DNA from: Phascolarctobacterium sp.
Lineage (GTDB): Bacteria > Bacillota > Negativicutes > Acidaminococcales > Acidaminococcaceae
Direction: 5' to 3'
Assembly (NCBI GenBank): GCA_030531205.1
Contig: JAUNOC010000001.1
Span: 186,001-250,000, forward strand
DNA length: 64,000 nucleotides
Part shown: piece after piece, positions 4,674 through 55,394 of the stretch
How the letters are laid out: each line of letters opens with the position of its first letter
Position numbering within the stretch: position 1 is the stretch's first letter
Position numbers and translations under genes: made by a program
The notes under the pieces: model-generated
The model's input: the letters and a program-made list of their open reading frames with translations, nothing else
Database searches by the model: none
What the model was told of the DNA's origin: nothing

Positions 4674-6545
4674 CTAAAACGAGTGACGTTTTATAAGTTC
4701 CAACGCCACCATAAGTACATTTATATCCGCCGGGCTGACACCGCTGATGCGTACCGCCTGGCCAATATTCAACGGCCTTATCTTATCCAATTTCTCTGCT
4801 GCCTCGCTGGACAGTTCTTTAACTGTATGATAATCAAAATCTTGGGGAATACTCTTATTTTCCAACCTCAACGCCCGTTCCACTTCCGCTTTTTGTTTTT
4901 CAATATAGCCGGCATATTTAACATGAATTTCCACCTGCTCTGCCGTGTGTCTATCCAATGTTGGCAAGCCAAAGGCCTCGCTTAAATCAGCATAACTGAC
5001 TTCCCGCCGCCGCAAAAGTTCTAAAGCCGATGTACCCTCACGCAAAGGCGTAGTACCCATAGCCGCCAACTTGGCATTTTCATCGTCATGTGGTGCAATA
5101 TGTTTATGTTGCAAAGCCGTCAAAGCCCTTGTCAAACCATCCCTTTTAGCAGTGAATTTGGCATAACGCCCATCCGTTACCAAACCAATATCCCGACCCA
5201 ACTGAGTCAACCGCAAATCTGCATTATCCTGACGCAAAAGCAAGCGATATTCTGCCCTGCTGGTCATCATACGATAGGGCTCATTAGTGCCTTTTGTTAC
5301 CAAATCATCAATCAAAACTCCAATATATGCCTGGTCACGGCGCAAAATTATTGGCGGCAAATTCCGTAATTTGCGTACTGCATTGATGCCGGCAATCAAC
5401 CCCTGACCTGCCGCCTCCTCGTAACCGCTAGTGCCATTGGATTGACCGGCGCTGTAAAAACCACTGATTTGCTTATGTTCCAAACTGGGCTGCAATTGCA
5501 GAGGATTAAGGCAATCATAATCAATGGCATAGCCCACCCGCATCATCTTGGCATTTTCCAAACCAGGAATCGTCCGCAAAAACTCCAACTGCACATCCGC
5601 CGGCAAAGAGGAACTCATTCCCTGAATATACATTTCCGTTGTGTTGCGGCCCTCCGGCTCAATAAATAGTTGATGCCGTTCCTTGTCCGCAAACCGCACA
5701 ATTTTCGCCTCAATGCTAGGGCAGTAGCGAGGGCCAACCCCTTCAATCATACCATTGAACATACCCGACAAATGTAAATTCTTCTTAATAATTTCGTGGG
5801 TCTTGGCGTTGGTATAACTCAAATAACAAGGAATCTGCTCCCTGCTTTTCACCTCGTCCATATAGGAAAAATTCTGCAAAACCTCATCCCCATATTGAGG
5901 TTCGGTCTTGGAAAAATCAATACTACGTTTGTCAATACGAGCAGGAGTACCGGTCTTAAACCGCATCAGTTCAATGCCGTTTTCCAGCAAACTGGCGCTT
6001 AATTTGTTGGCAGCACGTAACCCGTTGGGGCCACTTTCATAATTCACGGAACCATAGACAATGCGCCCTTTAAGATATGTGCCGGTACAGAGAATAACAC
6101 AGGGTGCTTCAAAAACTTCGCCCGTTTCCGCCTCCACCCCTTGCACTGCACCATTTTTCACCAACAATTTATCTATCATCAGTTGTTTTAATTCCAAATT
6201 TTCCTGCCGCTCAATAATGCCCTTCATTAAATGATGGTAAAAGGGCTTGTCCTCCTGTCCGCGCAGAGAATGAACAGCGTAACCCTTACCCGTATTCAAA
6301 AGCCGCATTTGCAGGCAAGCCACATCCGCACTTAAGGCCATCTGTCCGCCCAAAGCGTCAATCTCCCGCACCAGTTGTCCCTTAGCAGAACCTCCGATAC
6401 TGGGGTTACAGGGCATCAGCGCCAGATTGTCCAAACTTAAAGTTGCCAACATAGTTTTACAACCCAAACGGGCAGCCGCCAAAGCCGCCTCACACCCCGC
6501 ATGTCCCGCACCTATAACAATTATGTCAAACTTTTCAATTTGCAT
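4674..6545 (-). CDS. mnmG: tRNA uridine 5-carboxymethylaminomethyl modification enzyme MnmG
   Basis: 623-residue MnmG (GidA). The FAD-binding Rossmann motif is at the N-terminus (IIVIGAGHAGCEAA), followed by PCNPSIGGSAKG and the family signatures VGYAIDYDCLNP and SGYEEAAGQGLIAG, with the usual C-terminal helical domain (RPLNIGQAVRISGVSPADINVL). With MnmE it installs the cmnm5 group on U34 of certain tRNAs. An extended -10-like TGGTATAAT lies upstream of the ATG, suggesting its own promoter. It is separated from mnmE by 541 bp holding hairpin element A. Confidence 0.98.
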   Translation of the reverse strand: MQIEKFDIIVIGAGHAGCEAALAAARLGCKTMLATLSLDNLALMPCNPSIGGSAKGQLVREIDALGGQMALSADVACLQMRLLNTGKGYAVHSLRGQEDKPFYHHLMKGIIERQENLELKQLMIDKLLVKNGAVQGVEAETGEVFEAPCVILCTGTYLKGRIVYGSVNYESGPNGLRAANKLSASLLENGIELMRFKTGTPARIDKRSIDFSKTEPQYGDEVLQNFSYMDEVKSREQIPCYLSYTNAKTHEIIKKNLHLSGMFNGMIEGVGPRYCPSIEAKIVRFADKERHQLFIEPEGRNTTEMYIQGMSSSLPADVQLEFLRTIPGLENAKMMRVGYAIDYDCLNPLQLQPSLEHKQISGFYSAGQSNGTSGYEEAAGQGLIAGINAVRKLRNLPPIILRRDQAYIGVLIDDLVTKGTNEPYRMMTSRAEYRLLLRQDNADLRLTQLGRDIGLVTDGRYAKFTAKRDGLTRALTALQHKHIAPHDDENAKLAAMGTTPLREGTSALELLRRREVSYADLSEAFGLPTLDRHTAEQVEIHVKYAGYIEKQKAEVERALRLENKSIPQDFDYHTVKELSSEAAEKLDKIRPLNIGQAVRISGVSPADINVLMVALELIKRHSF

Positions 6546-6788: not shown

Positions 6789-7039
6789 CAATTTCAAAAT
6801 GACGTCATTTTGGGATAGAATGACGTCATTTTAAAATTCACTTTTTACGTTTTTAATCGCATTTTATTAAAGAGTGCTTTTAATTATGAAAATGCTTTTG
6901 ATGTGAAAAGGACTTTTATTGTCGTTCAAAAGCATAAAAATAAAAATTTTCGGTGTCGACACTTTCTCTGAAAGTAGCGACACCGAAAATTTATTGTTTC
7001 ACAATTTTTTCATTTTTGAATGAAAGAATTTTTTTGAAA
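6789..7039 (+). other. Hairpin element A: 251-bp non-coding element, two covarying hairpins
   Basis: No gene lies between mnmG and mnmE. This 251-base stretch matches, without gaps, the reverse complement of 50001-50251. Hairpin 1 is 6796-6832 (37 nt, arms built on ATGACGTCAT). Hairpin 2 is 6946-6992 (47 nt, 13-bp outer stem starting ATTTTCGGTGTCG, then an inner ACTTTC/GAAAGT stem). The scaffold between and around them is 146/167 identical to copy B by hand count, whereas the hairpin arms differ but stay complementary. The conserved tail contains ATTGTTTCAC and TTTGAATGA. Whether it acts as RNA or DNA is unknown. Confidence 0.75.
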
Positions 7040-7086: not shown

Positions 7087-8442
7087 CTATTTTCCCACAC
7101 AAAACTTTGCAAAAATTTTATTTATAATCTCATCCGTCACCTGTTCCCCCGTGATTTCACCCAAATTACTGATGGCATTTTGCAAATCAATAATCACACA
7201 GTCATAGGGCATTTTGTTATCAATGGTTTCAAGAGCATTTTGCAATGCCGCCACGGCTTTTTGCAATAAATCCAAATGCCGGACATTTTGTACAAAAACA
7301 CCGCTATCACCATGAGTACCGCTATAAGCATATTTTTGCATAGCAGTTTTCAACTCATTCAAGCCGTCCCTTGTTTTGCTGCTGATATTAAATAACGGAA
7401 AACCCTTTAATTCATCCTTCTCAATTTGCAAAGGCAAATCATTTTTGTTCAAAATCAATAGAGTGTTTTGCGGCTGCAAAACTTTCAACAATTCACGGTC
7501 TTCCTCCGTCAATGCCATACTGCCATCCAACACGCACAACACCAACTGGGCGGTTTCCAAAGTGGAACGGCTCCGCTCCACACCGATTTTTTCCACATAG
7601 TTATCCGTGTCATGAATACCGGCAGTGTCTGACAAAATCACAGGTACGCCGTTCAGCAAAATCTGCTCCTCAATCACATCCCGTGTGGTGCCGGCATAGG
7701 CAGAAACTATGGCACGTTCCTCTTCCAGAAGAGCATTGAGCAAACTGGATTTGCCCACATTGGGACGGCCGACAATGGCTACCCGCAACCCTTCCCGAAG
7801 GATTTTTCCCGTATGCCCCGTAGCAAGCAACTGCTCCAATCCGTCTTTGGTTTCTGTAATATTTTTTTGAGTATCAGAATAGGTTACATCTTCAATATCG
7901 TCTTCGGGATAATCAATTTTGGCTTCCAAATTAACAATGATATCTACCAAGTTGCCACGCAATTTTTTTATTTTGGCACTCAATTCCCCCTGCTGGGTAC
8001 GCAATGCCATTTGCAGAGCGGTTTCACTTTTGGCACGGATAATATCCATCACCGCTTCCGCTTGTGTCAAATCAATTCTGCCATTGAGAAATGCCCTCTT
8101 GGTGAACTCTCCCGGCTCAGCCATCCTTGCTCCGTTTTGCAAACACAGAGTCAAGATTTTTTGTAAAGCCGCCACGCCGCCATGACACTGGATTTCCACA
8201 ACATCTTCCGCAGTATAAGAATGAGGTGAGCGCATAAATACCGCCAGCACCTCGTCCACTATATCCCCGCCGTCCGCCACATGATTATATTCCATGTGCC
8301 GGTGCTGACCGCTCAAAGGTTTCGCCATTATTCTGTTAGCAATGTTCAGAGCATTTTCACCACTGAGCCGTACAATCCCCACCGCCCCTTCTCCCAGAGC
8401 CGTGGTAATAGCCGCTATGGTATCCGCTCCTAAATCCTGCAT
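7087..8442 (-). CDS. mnmE: tRNA modification GTPase MnmE
   Basis: 451-residue MnmE (TrmE). N-terminal folate-binding domain (DTIAAITTALGEGAVGIVRLSG), helical domain, inserted G domain with GRPNVGKSSLLN (G1), DTAGI (G3) and NKNDL (G4), and the C-terminal FCVGK carrying the essential Cys of the family. Partner of MnmG in U34 tRNA modification; normal length. RBS AGGAG precedes ATG 8442. A hairpin downstream of jag separates it from the upstream operon. Confidence 0.98.
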   Translation of the reverse strand: MQDLGADTIAAITTALGEGAVGIVRLSGENALNIANRIMAKPLSGQHRHMEYNHVADGGDIVDEVLAVFMRSPHSYTAEDVVEIQCHGGVAALQKILTLCLQNGARMAEPGEFTKRAFLNGRIDLTQAEAVMDIIRAKSETALQMALRTQQGELSAKIKKLRGNLVDIIVNLEAKIDYPEDDIEDVTYSDTQKNITETKDGLEQLLATGHTGKILREGLRVAIVGRPNVGKSSLLNALLEEERAIVSAYAGTTRDVIEEQILLNGVPVILSDTAGIHDTDNYVEKIGVERSRSTLETAQLVLCVLDGSMALTEEDRELLKVLQPQNTLLILNKNDLPLQIEKDELKGFPLFNISSKTRDGLNELKTAMQKYAYSGTHGDSGVFVQNVRHLDLLQKAVAALQNALETIDNKMPYDCVIIDLQNAISNLGEITGEQVTDEIINKIFAKFCVGK

Positions 8443-28982: not shown

Positions 28983-29023
28983 AAAAAGTGACGTTACTTT
29001 TGAATAAAGTAACGTCACTTTTT
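28983..29023. terminator. Bidirectional terminator between gyrA and folD
   Basis: A perfect 18-bp stem (28983-29000 with 29006-29023; arm AAAAAGTGACGTTACTTT) around a five-base loop, with A-rich and T-rich flanks. It can end both gyrA (+) and folD (-). Confidence 0.85.
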
Positions 29024-29880: not shown

Positions 29881-29906
29881 AACACCTCACGTCTAATACC
29901 TAATTA

Positions 29907-29933
29907 TAATCACAGGAACATTTTACCATAATT
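29907..29933 (+). repeat. Copy of the 27-bp interspersed repeat
   Basis: TAATCACAGGAACATTTTAC plus CATAATT, close to the consensus, in the folD-fhs gap. It is followed by runs of AACTTATAACTTATAAC. A degenerate copy lies on the other side of fhs (about 31754-31781). Confidence 0.6.
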
Positions 29934-31836: not shown

Positions 31837-31842
31837 GTTAAA

Positions 31843-31908
31843 ATACGCCCAGACGGTCGGCTTTCGCAAATTCATACTCCCTGTGGTTACTCCACAAATC
31901 CGTCAGTT
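31843..31908 (-). ncRNA. ZTP/ZMP (pfl) riboswitch
   Basis: On the minus strand the pfl-motif blocks appear in order: CTGACGGA, a stem GTGG/CCAC followed by AGGGAGTATGA, a variable linker, then GCCGACCGTCTGGGC, the strongly conserved 3' block. A rho-independent terminator follows. pfl RNAs sense ZTP/ZMP, the AICAR nucleotides that accumulate on 10-formyl-THF shortage, and commonly precede fhs, folD and purH, exactly the genes found downstream here. Confidence 0.85.
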
Positions 31909-31966
31909 ATATGAACATATTTATTATACTACATTTTGGGAGTTTTCTCAACTGCGAAATAAGTTT

Positions 31967-49840: not shown

Positions 49841-49879
49841 AATCTGATACTGAGATTGACCTAATCTCACTATCAGATT
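49841..49879. other. Hairpin H2 in the non-coding tract
   Basis: Arms 49841-49857 (AATCTGATACTGAGATT) and 49863-49879 pair with one mismatch around a five-base loop. No T-run, so not an evident terminator. Confidence 0.7.
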
Positions 49880-49927: not shown

Positions 49928-49961
49928 AATGATATCATACTAACTATGGTCTGATATCATT
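49928..49961. other. Hairpin H3 in the non-coding tract
   Basis: AATGATATCA ... TGATATCATT arms, each containing the palindrome TGATATCA, around a short bulged loop. Confidence 0.65.
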
Positions 49962-50000: not shown

Positions 50001-50251
50001 TTTCAAAAAAATTCTCTCATTCAAAACTGAAAAAATCGTGAAACAATATTTTTTTAATCACGTGATTTTTTAAAAAAATCACGTGATTAAAACTTTTTAC
50101 TTTTATGATTTTGAATGAAAATAAAAGTCCTCTTCACACTAAAAGCATTTTCATCAATGAAATCACTCTTCAATAAAACGCAATTAAAAGCGTGGAAAGT
50201 GAATTTCAAAATCGCGAGATTTTATATCAAAGTCGCGCGATTTTGAAATTG
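50001..50251 (-). other. Hairpin element B: 251-bp copy, inverted relative to element A
   Basis: The reverse complement aligns with 6789-7039 without a single gap. Hairpin 1 is 50208-50244 (37 nt; AAAATCGCG arms) and hairpin 2 spans 50052-50092 within 50048-50094 (20-bp perfect stem with AATCACGTGATT in both arms). Their sequence is unrelated to those of element A but position, length and pairing are the same. The 49500-50264 gap holds no gene; besides this element it has hairpins H1-H3 and AT-rich sequence. Confidence 0.75.
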
Positions 50252-50355
50252 AGATTATGCTGGCGAATGTACAATATAAGTGCAACAAAATAAAAATGAC
50301 ACATAGAATTCTGATAAAATAAAGTTGTAAAAAATCAAAATATCAGGAGGTATCT

Positions 50356-50841
50356 ATGCGTCATTACAGACATCTTACACCAGTTGAACGGGAATGTATA
50401 GCACTTTTTCATTTTTTTGGATATTCAATTACAACAATATCATGTGTATTGTGCCGTAACAAATCCACAGTTTCCCGGGAACTTAAGCGTAACAACATTT
50501 TGGACGGTATATATATGGAATTTTTTGCGACCAGACTGTATAAAGAACGAAGGACAAAATGTCACCGCAAGAAAATTCTGGACAATCCGGAAATCTGCAA
50601 ATATGTTAAAGAAAAATTTCTTGACCACCAGTGGTCACCGGAACAAATAGCAGGACGTCTTGCATTGGAAAAACACAAGAAAATTATTAGCTATAACACA
50701 ATTTACAGGGCAATTTACAACGGGATACTGGATGACGGACATTCCCGCCGTACAAACAGAATAATTATTCGCAAACTACGGCATAAGGGCAAAAAACGGC
50801 TCAAACATAGCCACATGAAAAAAGAGGCATATTCCCTGTGA
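50356..50841 (+). CDS. IS30-family transposase, N-terminal part (frameshifted)
   Basis: 161 codons. MRHYRHLTPVERECIALFHFFG with SITTISCVLCRNKSTVSRELKRN is the IS30 N-terminal HTH; HQWSPEQIAGRL and SYNTIYRAIYNG follow. The frame ends in EAYSL after an A6 run at 50818-50823; a -1 shift there joins KRGIFPVSNPISSRPLS of the second part, which is what an intact IS30 protein would read. RBS AGGAGG is strong. Confidence 0.85.
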   Translation: MRHYRHLTPVERECIALFHFFGYSITTISCVLCRNKSTVSRELKRNNILDGIYMEFFATRLYKERRTKCHRKKILDNPEICKYVKEKFLDHQWSPEQIAGRLALEKHKKIISYNTIYRAIYNGILDDGHSRRTNRIIIRKLRHKGKKRLKHSHMKKEAYSL

Positions 50842-51347
50842 GCAATCCAATATCATCACGTCCGTTAAGTGCCACAAACAGGTCAAGAAAAGGACATTGG
50901 GAAGCGGACACTGTAAGGGGAACCTATAATGGGGCATGTATAGTGACTTTGGTTGATAGAAAAAGTAAGTTGTTATGTGGCGGTAAAGCAGAACACAAAA
51001 CAGCTTACGATGTTAATAATGTCATTGTTTCGGCTCTGCACGATCAACCTTTACGTTCGGTAACACCGGACAGGGGGAAAGAATTTGCCAAACACAAAGA
51101 AGTCAGCGAAAAATTGAAACAGGTAAAATTTTATTTCCCTTTGCCGCAACATCCGTGGCAACGTGGTACAAATGAAAACACAAATGGTCTGCTAAGGGAA
51201 TATTTCCCTAAAGGAGTGGACATTTCAAATTTATCAGAAGAATATATTCAGTCAAAGTTTAATGAGCTAAACCTTCGTCCACGTAAATGTTTAAATTACA
51301 GGACTCCGTTTGAGGTTCATTATTCTAAAGTGTTGCACTTGTTTTGA
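50838..51347 (+). pseudogene. IS30-family transposase, C-terminal catalytic part
   Basis: 169 codons in the -1 frame relative to the first part, overlapping it by four bases. It holds the DDE catalytic core: first Asp in GHWEADTV, second Asp in TPDRGKEF, Glu in WQRGTNENTNGLLREYFPKG. Either a loss-of-function frameshift or expressed by slippage on the A6 tract; a GTG restart at 50838 would lack the DNA-binding domain. Confidence 0.8.
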
Positions 51348-51388
51348 CAATTCAAACTGTTTTGAATGAAAAAAATCCTGTGACTATT

Positions 51389-55301: not shown

Positions 55302-55394
55302 AATTGTGGTGATATGTTCCAGTGATTAAATATAAAAAAGTTCGCTTTCATCTAACTTTCCCAATTCTAATCACAGGAACATTCTACCATAATT
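55302..55394. repeat. Inverted pair of the 27-bp interspersed repeat
   Basis: 55302-55328 (minus, TGGTGATATGTTCCAGTGAT core) and 55368-55394 (plus, TAATCACAGGAACATTCTAC) face each other over about 39 bases, able to form a long imperfect hairpin. AATTACGCATTGCGAATTGC-type filler follows toward the EamA gene. Confidence 0.6.

What the first reader, a model, noticed from the sequence alone, without database searches (positions are those of the whole stretch)
6789..7039. 251-bp non-coding element whose two hairpins covary wholesale with a second copy
6789-7039 and the reverse complement of 50001-50251 align end to end without a gap. The scaffold outside the hairpins is 146/167 identical by hand count (tail segment 44/47). 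Both hairpin sites occupy the same positions with the same lengths (37 and 47 nt) and the same pairing register, yet arm sequences differ almost completely: TGACGTCA-based versus TCGCG-based arms at site 1, GGTGTCG versus AATCACGTGATT arms at site 2. Replacement of whole arms with pairing kept implies selection on the fold or hairpin renewal by self-templated copying. I know of no described family with this pattern. It could be a structured RNA, a miniature mobile element or a chromosomal DNA-binding platform.
Basis: seen in the sequence. Interest (0 to 1): 0.88.

Follow-up and report, generated by a model that had tools for sequence, protein, structure and literature searches.

The report
Dispersed paired operators with swapped half-sites
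The two hairpins are best read as paired protein-binding sites, in a gene-less copy of the control region of a previously unrecognised family of small bacterial proteins whose DNA-reading end and binding site appear to be exchanged together.

Summary
It is not a two-copy curiosity. The 1.33-Mb genome (Acidaminococcaceae, near 'Candidatus Phascolarctobacterium caballi') holds 15 near full-length copies and about 20 partial ones. In nearly all, each hairpin is two 8-mers T-NN-CG-NN-A, 21 bp apart centre to centre: T, C, G, A are 93-100% conserved, NN is free but matched between half-sites. Identical palindromes are paired almost only at 20-22 bp (two helical turns). Such pairs lie about 25-65 bp upstream of the start codons of a genus-restricted orphan protein family with an N-terminal basic helix (6/9 family genes versus 10/1123 others). 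Two paralogues share 520 nt of identical coding DNA but differ in one cassette: operator plus first ~10 codons. In another pair the operator changes from TGACGTCA to TTATATAA while the basic helix changes R to Q. The element is most likely a gene-less relative of these leaders carrying two paired operators. Binding, autoregulation and any role of the dispersed copies are inferred; a leader-RNA reading is not excluded.

The parts
6789..7039 (-). Copy 1 of the non-coding element. The strand given is the sense of the homologous gene leaders: leader type A2 with site 2, then leader type A1 with site 1; it lies between two co-directional genes (4674-6545 and 7087-8442, mnmG- and mnmE-like by eye)
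6800..6828 (.). Site 1 of copy 1: paired palindrome TGACGTCA-N13-TGACGTCA, 21 bp centre to centre
6954..6982 (.). Site 2 of copy 1: TGTCGACA-N13-TAGCGACA, three of four half-sites alike
50001..50251 (+). Copy 2 of the element (sense of the leaders on +)
50058..50086 (.). Site 2 of copy 2: TCACGTGA-N13-TCACGTGA
50212..50240 (.). Site 1 of copy 2: TCGCGAGA-N13-TCGCGCGA
28989..29017 (.). Isolated paired site outside the element, TGACGTTA-N13-TAACGTCA, between convergent genes
50263..51356 (+). IS30-like insertion sequence (two ORFs, 161 and 169 aa) that interrupts copy 2; 3-bp duplication CTG (50260-50262 and 51357-51359); its end lies about 36 bp from the dyad of site 1

Best explanation
The element is a non-coding relative of the 5' control regions (leaders) of a lineage-specific family of small DNA-binding proteins. 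Each 'hairpin' is a paired operator: two 8-bp dyads T-NN-CG-NN-A about two helical turns apart, as expected for two protein dimers on one face of the DNA. The proteins read the site with a basic N-terminal alpha-helix (xxExxKRYRxKKKL), much as bZIP basic regions do; the central CG and outer T..A are common and NN is the variable part of the half-site. Paralogues differ in the residues before KRYR, and those residues and the operator just upstream are exchanged as one cassette, which yields new protein-site pairs. In the family's own genes the operator lies between the promoter and the ribosome-binding site, so autorepression is the likely use. The dispersed element carries two leaders in tandem (type A2, then type A1) without the genes, hence two paired operators whose half-sites were swapped independently from copy to copy. 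Shown: sequence pattern, spacing, position in front of the genes, co-distribution, cassette exchange, homology of element and leaders. Inferred: binding, dimers, autorepression, bZIP-like reading, and whether dispersed copies act as decoys or regulatory sites or are relics.
For: (1) In the arms T, C, G, A columns are 93-100% conserved, the NN columns 33-60%, the scaffold 91%. (2) Of 49 pairs of identical palindromic 8-mers within 80 bp genome-wide, 41 are 20, 21 or 22 bp apart, from several unrelated sequence classes. (3) Paired sites lie upstream of 6 of 9 genes of one paralogous family versus 10 of 1123 other genes, Fisher p 2e-10. (4) C7:13454 and C10:47994: 13 successive 40-nt windows of coding sequence are identical and the promoter region is about 90% identical, but operator plus first ~10 codons match at only 24/40, 13/40, 23/40. 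(5) C10:168678 and C10:123975 (420 bits): TGACGTCA becomes TTATATAA and EHHKRFRKRR becomes EHQRRFQKRR. (6) TGACGTCA-N12 recurs with EHSKRSRKRN in congener G002, TTGCGTAA/TTACGCAA with ECDKRYRKRK in G001, TTACGTAA with a gene remnant ECAKRYRLKKK in G002. (7) Co-distribution: TNACGTNA-N13-TNACGTNA 19x in G000, 22x in G002, 0-3 (control level) in 198 other Negativicutes; TNTCGANA pairs in G000 and G001; the protein only in this genus among 59 family, 250 class and 398 phylum genomes, apart from two marginal hits to unrelated large proteins. (8) The element model matches the leaders at E 1e-19, 2e-18, 3e-13, 4e-10. (9) AlphaFold: continuous helix 5-31 carries the basic region, pLDDT 80-91. (10) Asymmetric half-sites occur both inverted and direct.
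Against: No binding or expression data. The outermost half-sites match best (17 of 19 distinct alleles) and the inner ones less (10 of 19), as a fold would also give. The operators lie in the probably transcribed leader, so they could act as RNA. Three of nine family genes fail the strict upstream test (C10:47994 narrowly, C2:37496 and C14:74393 clearly). The four most common arm types of the element (TTAC, TCAC, TGTC, TGAC at N13) have no reader identified in this genome. Copies are related by descent, so allele counts are not independent. Gene calls came from a simple ORF script.
Confidence: 0.7

Rival explanations
1. Leader RNA: the hairpins act in the transcript, and the basic N-terminal helix is an arginine-rich RNA-binding motif (lambda N- or Rev-like) that binds its own mRNA leader.
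For: Sites lie downstream of -10 boxes and upstream of the start codons; strong predicted hairpins; outer half-sites match in 17 of 19 alleles.
Against: Most arms are palindromes by themselves, which a stem does not need; direct arrangements of asymmetric arms leave the stem with mismatches; 20-22 bp spacing in unrelated classes; mismatches show no G-U preference (inspection); many copies stand in every gene orientation.
Confidence: 0.14
2. Mobile-element fold: the hairpins are cruciform or single-strand structures needed for the spread of a MITE- or REP-like element, or targets of an insertion sequence, and only the fold is selected.
For: Multi-copy mosaic repeats in about 6% of the genome; an IS30-like IS sits at one fixed distance from four paired palindromes with different arms.
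Against: Does not explain T..CG..A, arm palindromicity, or the linked N-terminal change in adjacent genes; the element shows no convincing TIRs or target duplication of its own.
Confidence: 0.09
3. Neutral mutational renewal: template switching keeps arms complementary, and wholesale change is drift plus correction or gene conversion between copies.
For: Arm cassettes are shared between sites: site 2 of L010/L011 equals site 1 of L012 including loop and flanks. Transitional sites have three of four half-sites changed.
Against: Fixed T, CG, A beside free NN; spacing; co-change with protein residues.
Confidence: 0.05
4. Operators of toxin-antitoxin complexes (FitAB/VapBC-like inverted sites two turns apart).
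For: The genome has nine RelB-family antitoxins; two lie next to element copies.
Against: The relB promoters carry other inverted repeats and no T-NN-CG-NN-A pair of their own; the two adjacent cases are a segmental duplication. C7 and C10:47994 are followed at once by a terminator, with no partner gene.
Confidence: 0.02

Closest known systems
REP sequences with RAYT (TnpA-REP) genes in Gammaproteobacteria
   Same: Dispersed non-coding palindromic elements plus a few genes of a cognate family flanked by the same palindromes; reader and palindrome diversify together; IS insertions target the palindromes (REPs as IS targets: PMC1525189)
   Different: The protein here is all-helical, without a Pfam match (no Y1/HUH transposase); sites are paired dsDNA dyads at 20-22 bp, with only NN variable; operator and recognition region are exchanged as a cassette in front of the gene
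Eukaryotic bZIP basic regions and ACGT-core boxes
   Same: TGACGTCA, CACGTG, TTACGTAA and AACGTT are classic bZIP sites; a basic stretch at the start of a continuous helix (KERCKRYRLKKKL resembles RESARRSRLRKQ; comparison from memory)
   Different: No bZIP match in Pfam even at E up to 1; no extended leucine zipper; bacterial, genus-restricted; paired sites; non-ACGT variants (TGTCGACA, TCGCGA, TTATATAA)
Diverged autorepressor-operator pairs (phage immunity, ParB/Noc sites)
   Same: Paralogous readers with matched palindromic sites, often CG-centred; specificity set by a few residues (from memory)
   Different: No HTH in the model; change is confined to an operator plus N-terminus cassette with identical coding DNA after it; many gene-less copies
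BIME, ERIC and Correia-type interspersed repeats
   Same: Mosaic intergenic palindromic modules in many copies
   Different: Arms are replaced wholesale within a conserved scaffold, and match sites in front of a protein family

Membership tests
Known structured RNA family (Rfam) | Match at gathering threshold over 6789-7039 or 50001-50251 | tested here: not met
   Only a ZMP/ZTP riboswitch at 31840-31920 is found in the window
REP-RAYT | Y1 (HUH) transposase-type reader gene | tested here: not met
   No Pfam family above cut-off for seven family members; all-helical model without PDB match
REP-RAYT | Reader gene adjacent to the palindromes, dispersed gene-less copies | tested here: met
bZIP | Pfam bZIP match | tested here: not met
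   None at E up to 1
bZIP | Basic region in a continuous N-terminal helix | tested here: met
   Helix 5-31 in the aligned model; helix 5-49 in a low-confidence second model; predicted, not solved
bZIP | Extended leucine zipper after the basic region | tested here: inconclusive
   Helix ends at residue 31, two heptad positions at most (sequence); dimer not modelled
Toxin-antitoxin operator | Operator upstream of an antitoxin-toxin pair | tested here: not met
   relB promoters lack the pairs; C7 and C10:47994 have no partner gene before the terminator
Transposon/MITE | Terminal inverted repeats and target duplication of the element itself | tested here: inconclusive
   Ends share only a degenerate CATTCAAAAC-type repeat and flanks are mosaic; a paralogous segment without the element gives no clean empty site
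IS30-family target hot spot | Insertions at or near palindromes | tested here: met
   4 of 6 IS copies lie at the same distance from a paired palindrome (three by script, L275 by hand count); IS30 hot spots are nearly palindromic (PMC9333248)
Anti-phage defence genes (PADLOC) | Match to a defence model | tested here: not met
   No significant match for two members

The most novel reading that the evidence does not exclude
A new kind of self-diversifying regulator-site system in bacteria: an orphan family that reads DNA with a single basic helix (bZIP-like) and renews its specificity by exchanging a cassette holding both the operator and the recognition residues, while gene-less copies spread paired operators over the chromosome as a binding platform that an IS30-like element also uses as a landmark.
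Probability: 0.4. Interest if true: 0.92.

Novelty: new variant of a known kind. Interest (0 to 1): 0.8.

Why it matters
If true, a genus of gut bacteria evolves protein-DNA recognition in a nearly isolated form: a short helix and an 8-bp half-site system changed together while the rest of the gene stays identical. That gives a natural table of matched reader residues and half-sites (about ten pairs here) and makes the question of how an autoregulator moves to a new operator directly testable. It would also add a bacterial protein family with a bZIP-like mode of reading, and explain a large class of intergenic hairpins that would otherwise be filed as RNA structures or REP-like repeats.

Tried and rejected
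Coding potential of the scaffold: the reverse-strand frame MILNENKSPLHTKSIFIxxITL is open in most copies, but differences fall on codon positions 476/336/450 and start or stop codons are lost in several copies: not convincing. Terminators: copies are spread over co-directional, divergent and convergent gaps as the background is (18/7/4 versus 327/80/63). Toxin-antitoxin operators: see rivals. Rfam. Exact 28-mer of the right end in named genomes other than this one: none. Family proteins in phages, plasmids, viral contigs: none. Sequence or fold match in the PDB: none of weight; best VIA-align Z 8.7, a designed helical bundle over 77 residues, which is within the usual noise for helical models. 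Clean empty site from a paralogous segment: not obtained. Literature on prokaryotic bZIP or on repeats of this genus: nothing relevant in the open-access library. A general count of unlike palindromes by spacing was spoiled by a run of N and is not used. No covariance model was built: arm alleles were compared directly instead.

Full report
OBSERVATION. The two stretches align as stated: 251 bp, no gap, 146/167 identical outside the hairpins, 25/37 and 24/47 inside, tail 44/47. Each hairpin folds far better than shuffles. Rfam knows only a ZTP riboswitch in this window.

MORE COPIES. The window lies in a 1.33-Mb, 15-contig genome of the Acidaminococcaceae; the nearest named relative by the MnmE-like protein is Candidatus Phascolarctobacterium caballi at 84%. 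A BLAST search finds 15 near full-length copies and more fragments; a profile of the copies finds about 20 partial ones. I read the whole genome piece by piece. The element is one section of longer mosaic intergenic repeats with further hairpin modules, themselves with exchanged arms: GGGAAAT-TGGGT/TTAGT/ACCTG- modules and AATCTNATATNAGATT modules. Copies sit between genes in all orientations, as the background does.

ANATOMY OF THE ARMS. In 15 aligned copies the arms obey one rule, T-NN-CG-NN-A, twice per hairpin with 13 bases between. Majority fractions are 0.93-1.0 at T, C, G and A, 0.33-0.60 at NN, and 0.906 in the scaffold. Arm types include TGACGTCA, TGTCGACA, TCACGTGA, TTACGTAA, TAACGTTA, TCTCGCGA/TCGCGAGA and TGGCGACA/TGTCGCCA. 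Most are palindromes on their own, which a stem does not need. Among 19 distinct arm pairs from the three genomes of the genus all four half-sites agree beyond shuffles: outer-outer 17/19, the other five comparisons 8-13 of 19, against 2.5-3 expected. Where a site has two kinds of half-site, both inverted (TGGCGACA..TGTCGCCA) and direct (TCTCGCGA..TCTCGCGA; TGTCGCCA..TGTCGCCA) arrangements exist. Two copies (L005, L013) have lost one arm and keep a single palindrome, as expected from slippage between direct repeats.

SPACING. Over the genome, 49 pairs of identical palindromic 8-mers (excluding two-letter words) lie within 80 bp, and 41 of them are 20, 21 or 22 bp apart: TAACGTTA mostly at 20, T-NN-CG-NN-A at 21, T-N-ATAT-N-A mostly at 22. 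Congeners show the same in other scaffolds: in G002 TCACGTGA, TTACGTAA, TAACGTTA and TGACGTCA appear at one position of a different conserved scaffold, and an array repeats ATATTACGTAATAT every 20 bp; in G001 TGTCGACA pairs appear. Two helical turns is the natural reading: two dimers on one face of duplex DNA.

THE READERS. Paired sites outside the element led to genes. A paralogous family of nine proteins of about 175-240 aa shares an N-terminal basic stretch, with R, K and L invariant within xxExxKRYRxKKKL. Paired palindromes lie upstream of six of nine by a strict test, against ten of 1123 other genes (p 2e-10), some of which simply have an element copy upstream; a seventh gene (C10:47994) has a pair with two mismatches. 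-10 boxes lie upstream and the start codon downstream of the site. Matched pairs read by eye: EKQKRYRLKKK-TAAC; ECCRRYRMKKK-TCGC/TCTC; ERCKRYRLKKK-TGGC/TGTC; DYCKRYRLKKK-TGTC and variants; EHHKRFRKRRK-TGAC; EHQRRFQKRRK-TTAT; EAMKRCRQKKK-TAAC (N12); G001 ECDKRYRKRKK-TTGC/TTAC; G002 EHSKRSRKRNK-TGAC; G002 gene remnant ECAKRYRLKKK-TTAC.

CASSETTE EXCHANGE. C7:13454 and C10:47994 are identical over 13 consecutive 40-nt windows of the coding sequence; the promoter region matches at 35-38 of 40, but the windows holding the operator and the first codons match at 24, 13 and 23 of 40. So operator and recognition residues differ as one block inside otherwise near-identical units. C10:168678 and C10:123975 repeat the pattern, with CG lost from the operator centre where an arginine of the basic helix becomes glutamine.

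ELEMENT AND LEADERS. The element profile matches the leaders of C13:88383 (A2 half; E 1e-19) and of C7:13454, C10:47994 and C5:33334 (A1 half; E 2e-18, 3e-13, 4e-10). In the sense of the genes the element is an A2 leader followed by an A1 leader, without the genes. Three arm types of the non-coding copies (TGGC/TGTC, TCGC/TCTC, TAAC) match operators of readers still present in this genome; others (TTAC, TCAC, TGTC, TGAC at N13) do not, which fits relics or lost readers.

DISTRIBUTION. TNACGTNA-N13-TNACGTNA occurs 19 and 22 times in G000 and G002 and at control level in 198 other genomes of the class. The protein family is found only in this genus among 59 family, 250 class and 398 phylum genomes, apart from two marginal partial hits to 830-848-aa sensor-kinase-like frames. 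It has no match above cut-off in Pfam, PHROGs or NCBIfam and no significant match in PADLOC, phages, plasmids or the PDB.

STRUCTURE. AlphaFold with 11 sequences gives an all-helical protein, mean pLDDT 83, with a continuous helix 5-31 carrying the basic region. No PDB fold stands out. A second member folded alone also has one long N-terminal helix, at low confidence.

AN INDEPENDENT HINT. The IS30-like IS that interrupts copy 2 occurs six times in G000 and G002. Four insertions lie at one distance from the dyad of a paired palindrome, with four different arm sequences and three different flanks; three by script, and L275 by hand count because its arms are mismatched. Something about the paired palindrome as a unit, its shape or its bound protein, guides the insertion. 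IS30 is known to favour nearly palindromic hot spots (PMC9333248).

WHAT IS SHOWN AND WHAT IS INFERRED. Shown: the sequence rule, spacing, gene association, co-distribution, cassette exchange, homology of element and leaders. Inferred: duplex binding by dimers, bZIP-like reading, autorepression, function of dispersed copies. The main rival is a leader RNA bound by an arginine-rich helix; duplex operators explain palindromic arms, direct arrangements and helical spacing better. No binding data exist, genes were called by a simple script, and assemblies of the congeners are fragmented at these very repeats.

VERDICT. Observation confirmed; interpretation partly supported. The most probable reading is a set of dispersed paired operators co-diversifying with an orphan family of basic-helix proteins, organised like REP-RAYT but with an unrelated reader.

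Noticed in passing
window 50263-51356; L271, L272, L275, L276: IS30-like IS: four of six copies in two species sit at the same distance (36-37 bp) from the dyad of a paired palindrome, whatever its arm sequence; copies have identical ends in both species, which suggests recent transfer.
   Followed up: partly
genome-wide; in the window e.g. 2454-2488, 29899-29933, 55360-55394: A short repeat TA-ATCACAGGAACATNTTACC is present about 286 times in 1.33 Mb, 240 times preceded by TA: possibly ends of a very abundant MITE.
   Followed up: partly
C1:29260-29388, C8:19955-20085, C10:97621-97749 (loci L051, L056, L057, L063): Other hairpin modules (GGGAAAT...ATTTCCC) also exchange their arm cores (TGGGT, TTAGT, ACCTG) in a conserved scaffold; their readers are unknown.
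   Followed up: no
window 49841-49879 and about 49928-49961: Paired AT-centred palindromes (AATCTGATACTGAGATT type and TGATATCA type, about 22 bp apart) next to copy 2: a second class of paired sites.
   Followed up: no
C13:25732, 52912, 70690, 80084; C4:42033, 49274, 83227; C6:108824: Eight TAACGTTA-N12-TAACGTTA sites with unrelated flanks; one lies upstream of the family gene C13:52191, so they may be its regulon.
   Followed up: partly
C13:152555-152887 and C6:25627-25920: Two RelB-family antitoxin genes without an obvious toxin lie directly beside element copies, as part of a segmental duplication.
   Followed up: partly
window 31840-31920 (-): ZMP/ZTP riboswitch (Rfam RF01750, 61.8 bits).
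   Followed up: no
G001:C219:3, G001:C21:3, G002:C298, G002:C94: Contigs of the congeners break inside family genes or at paired palindromes, as expected from several near-identical copies; G002:C94 holds a truncated gene remnant without an ATG beside an intact TTACGTAA pair.
   Followed up: partly
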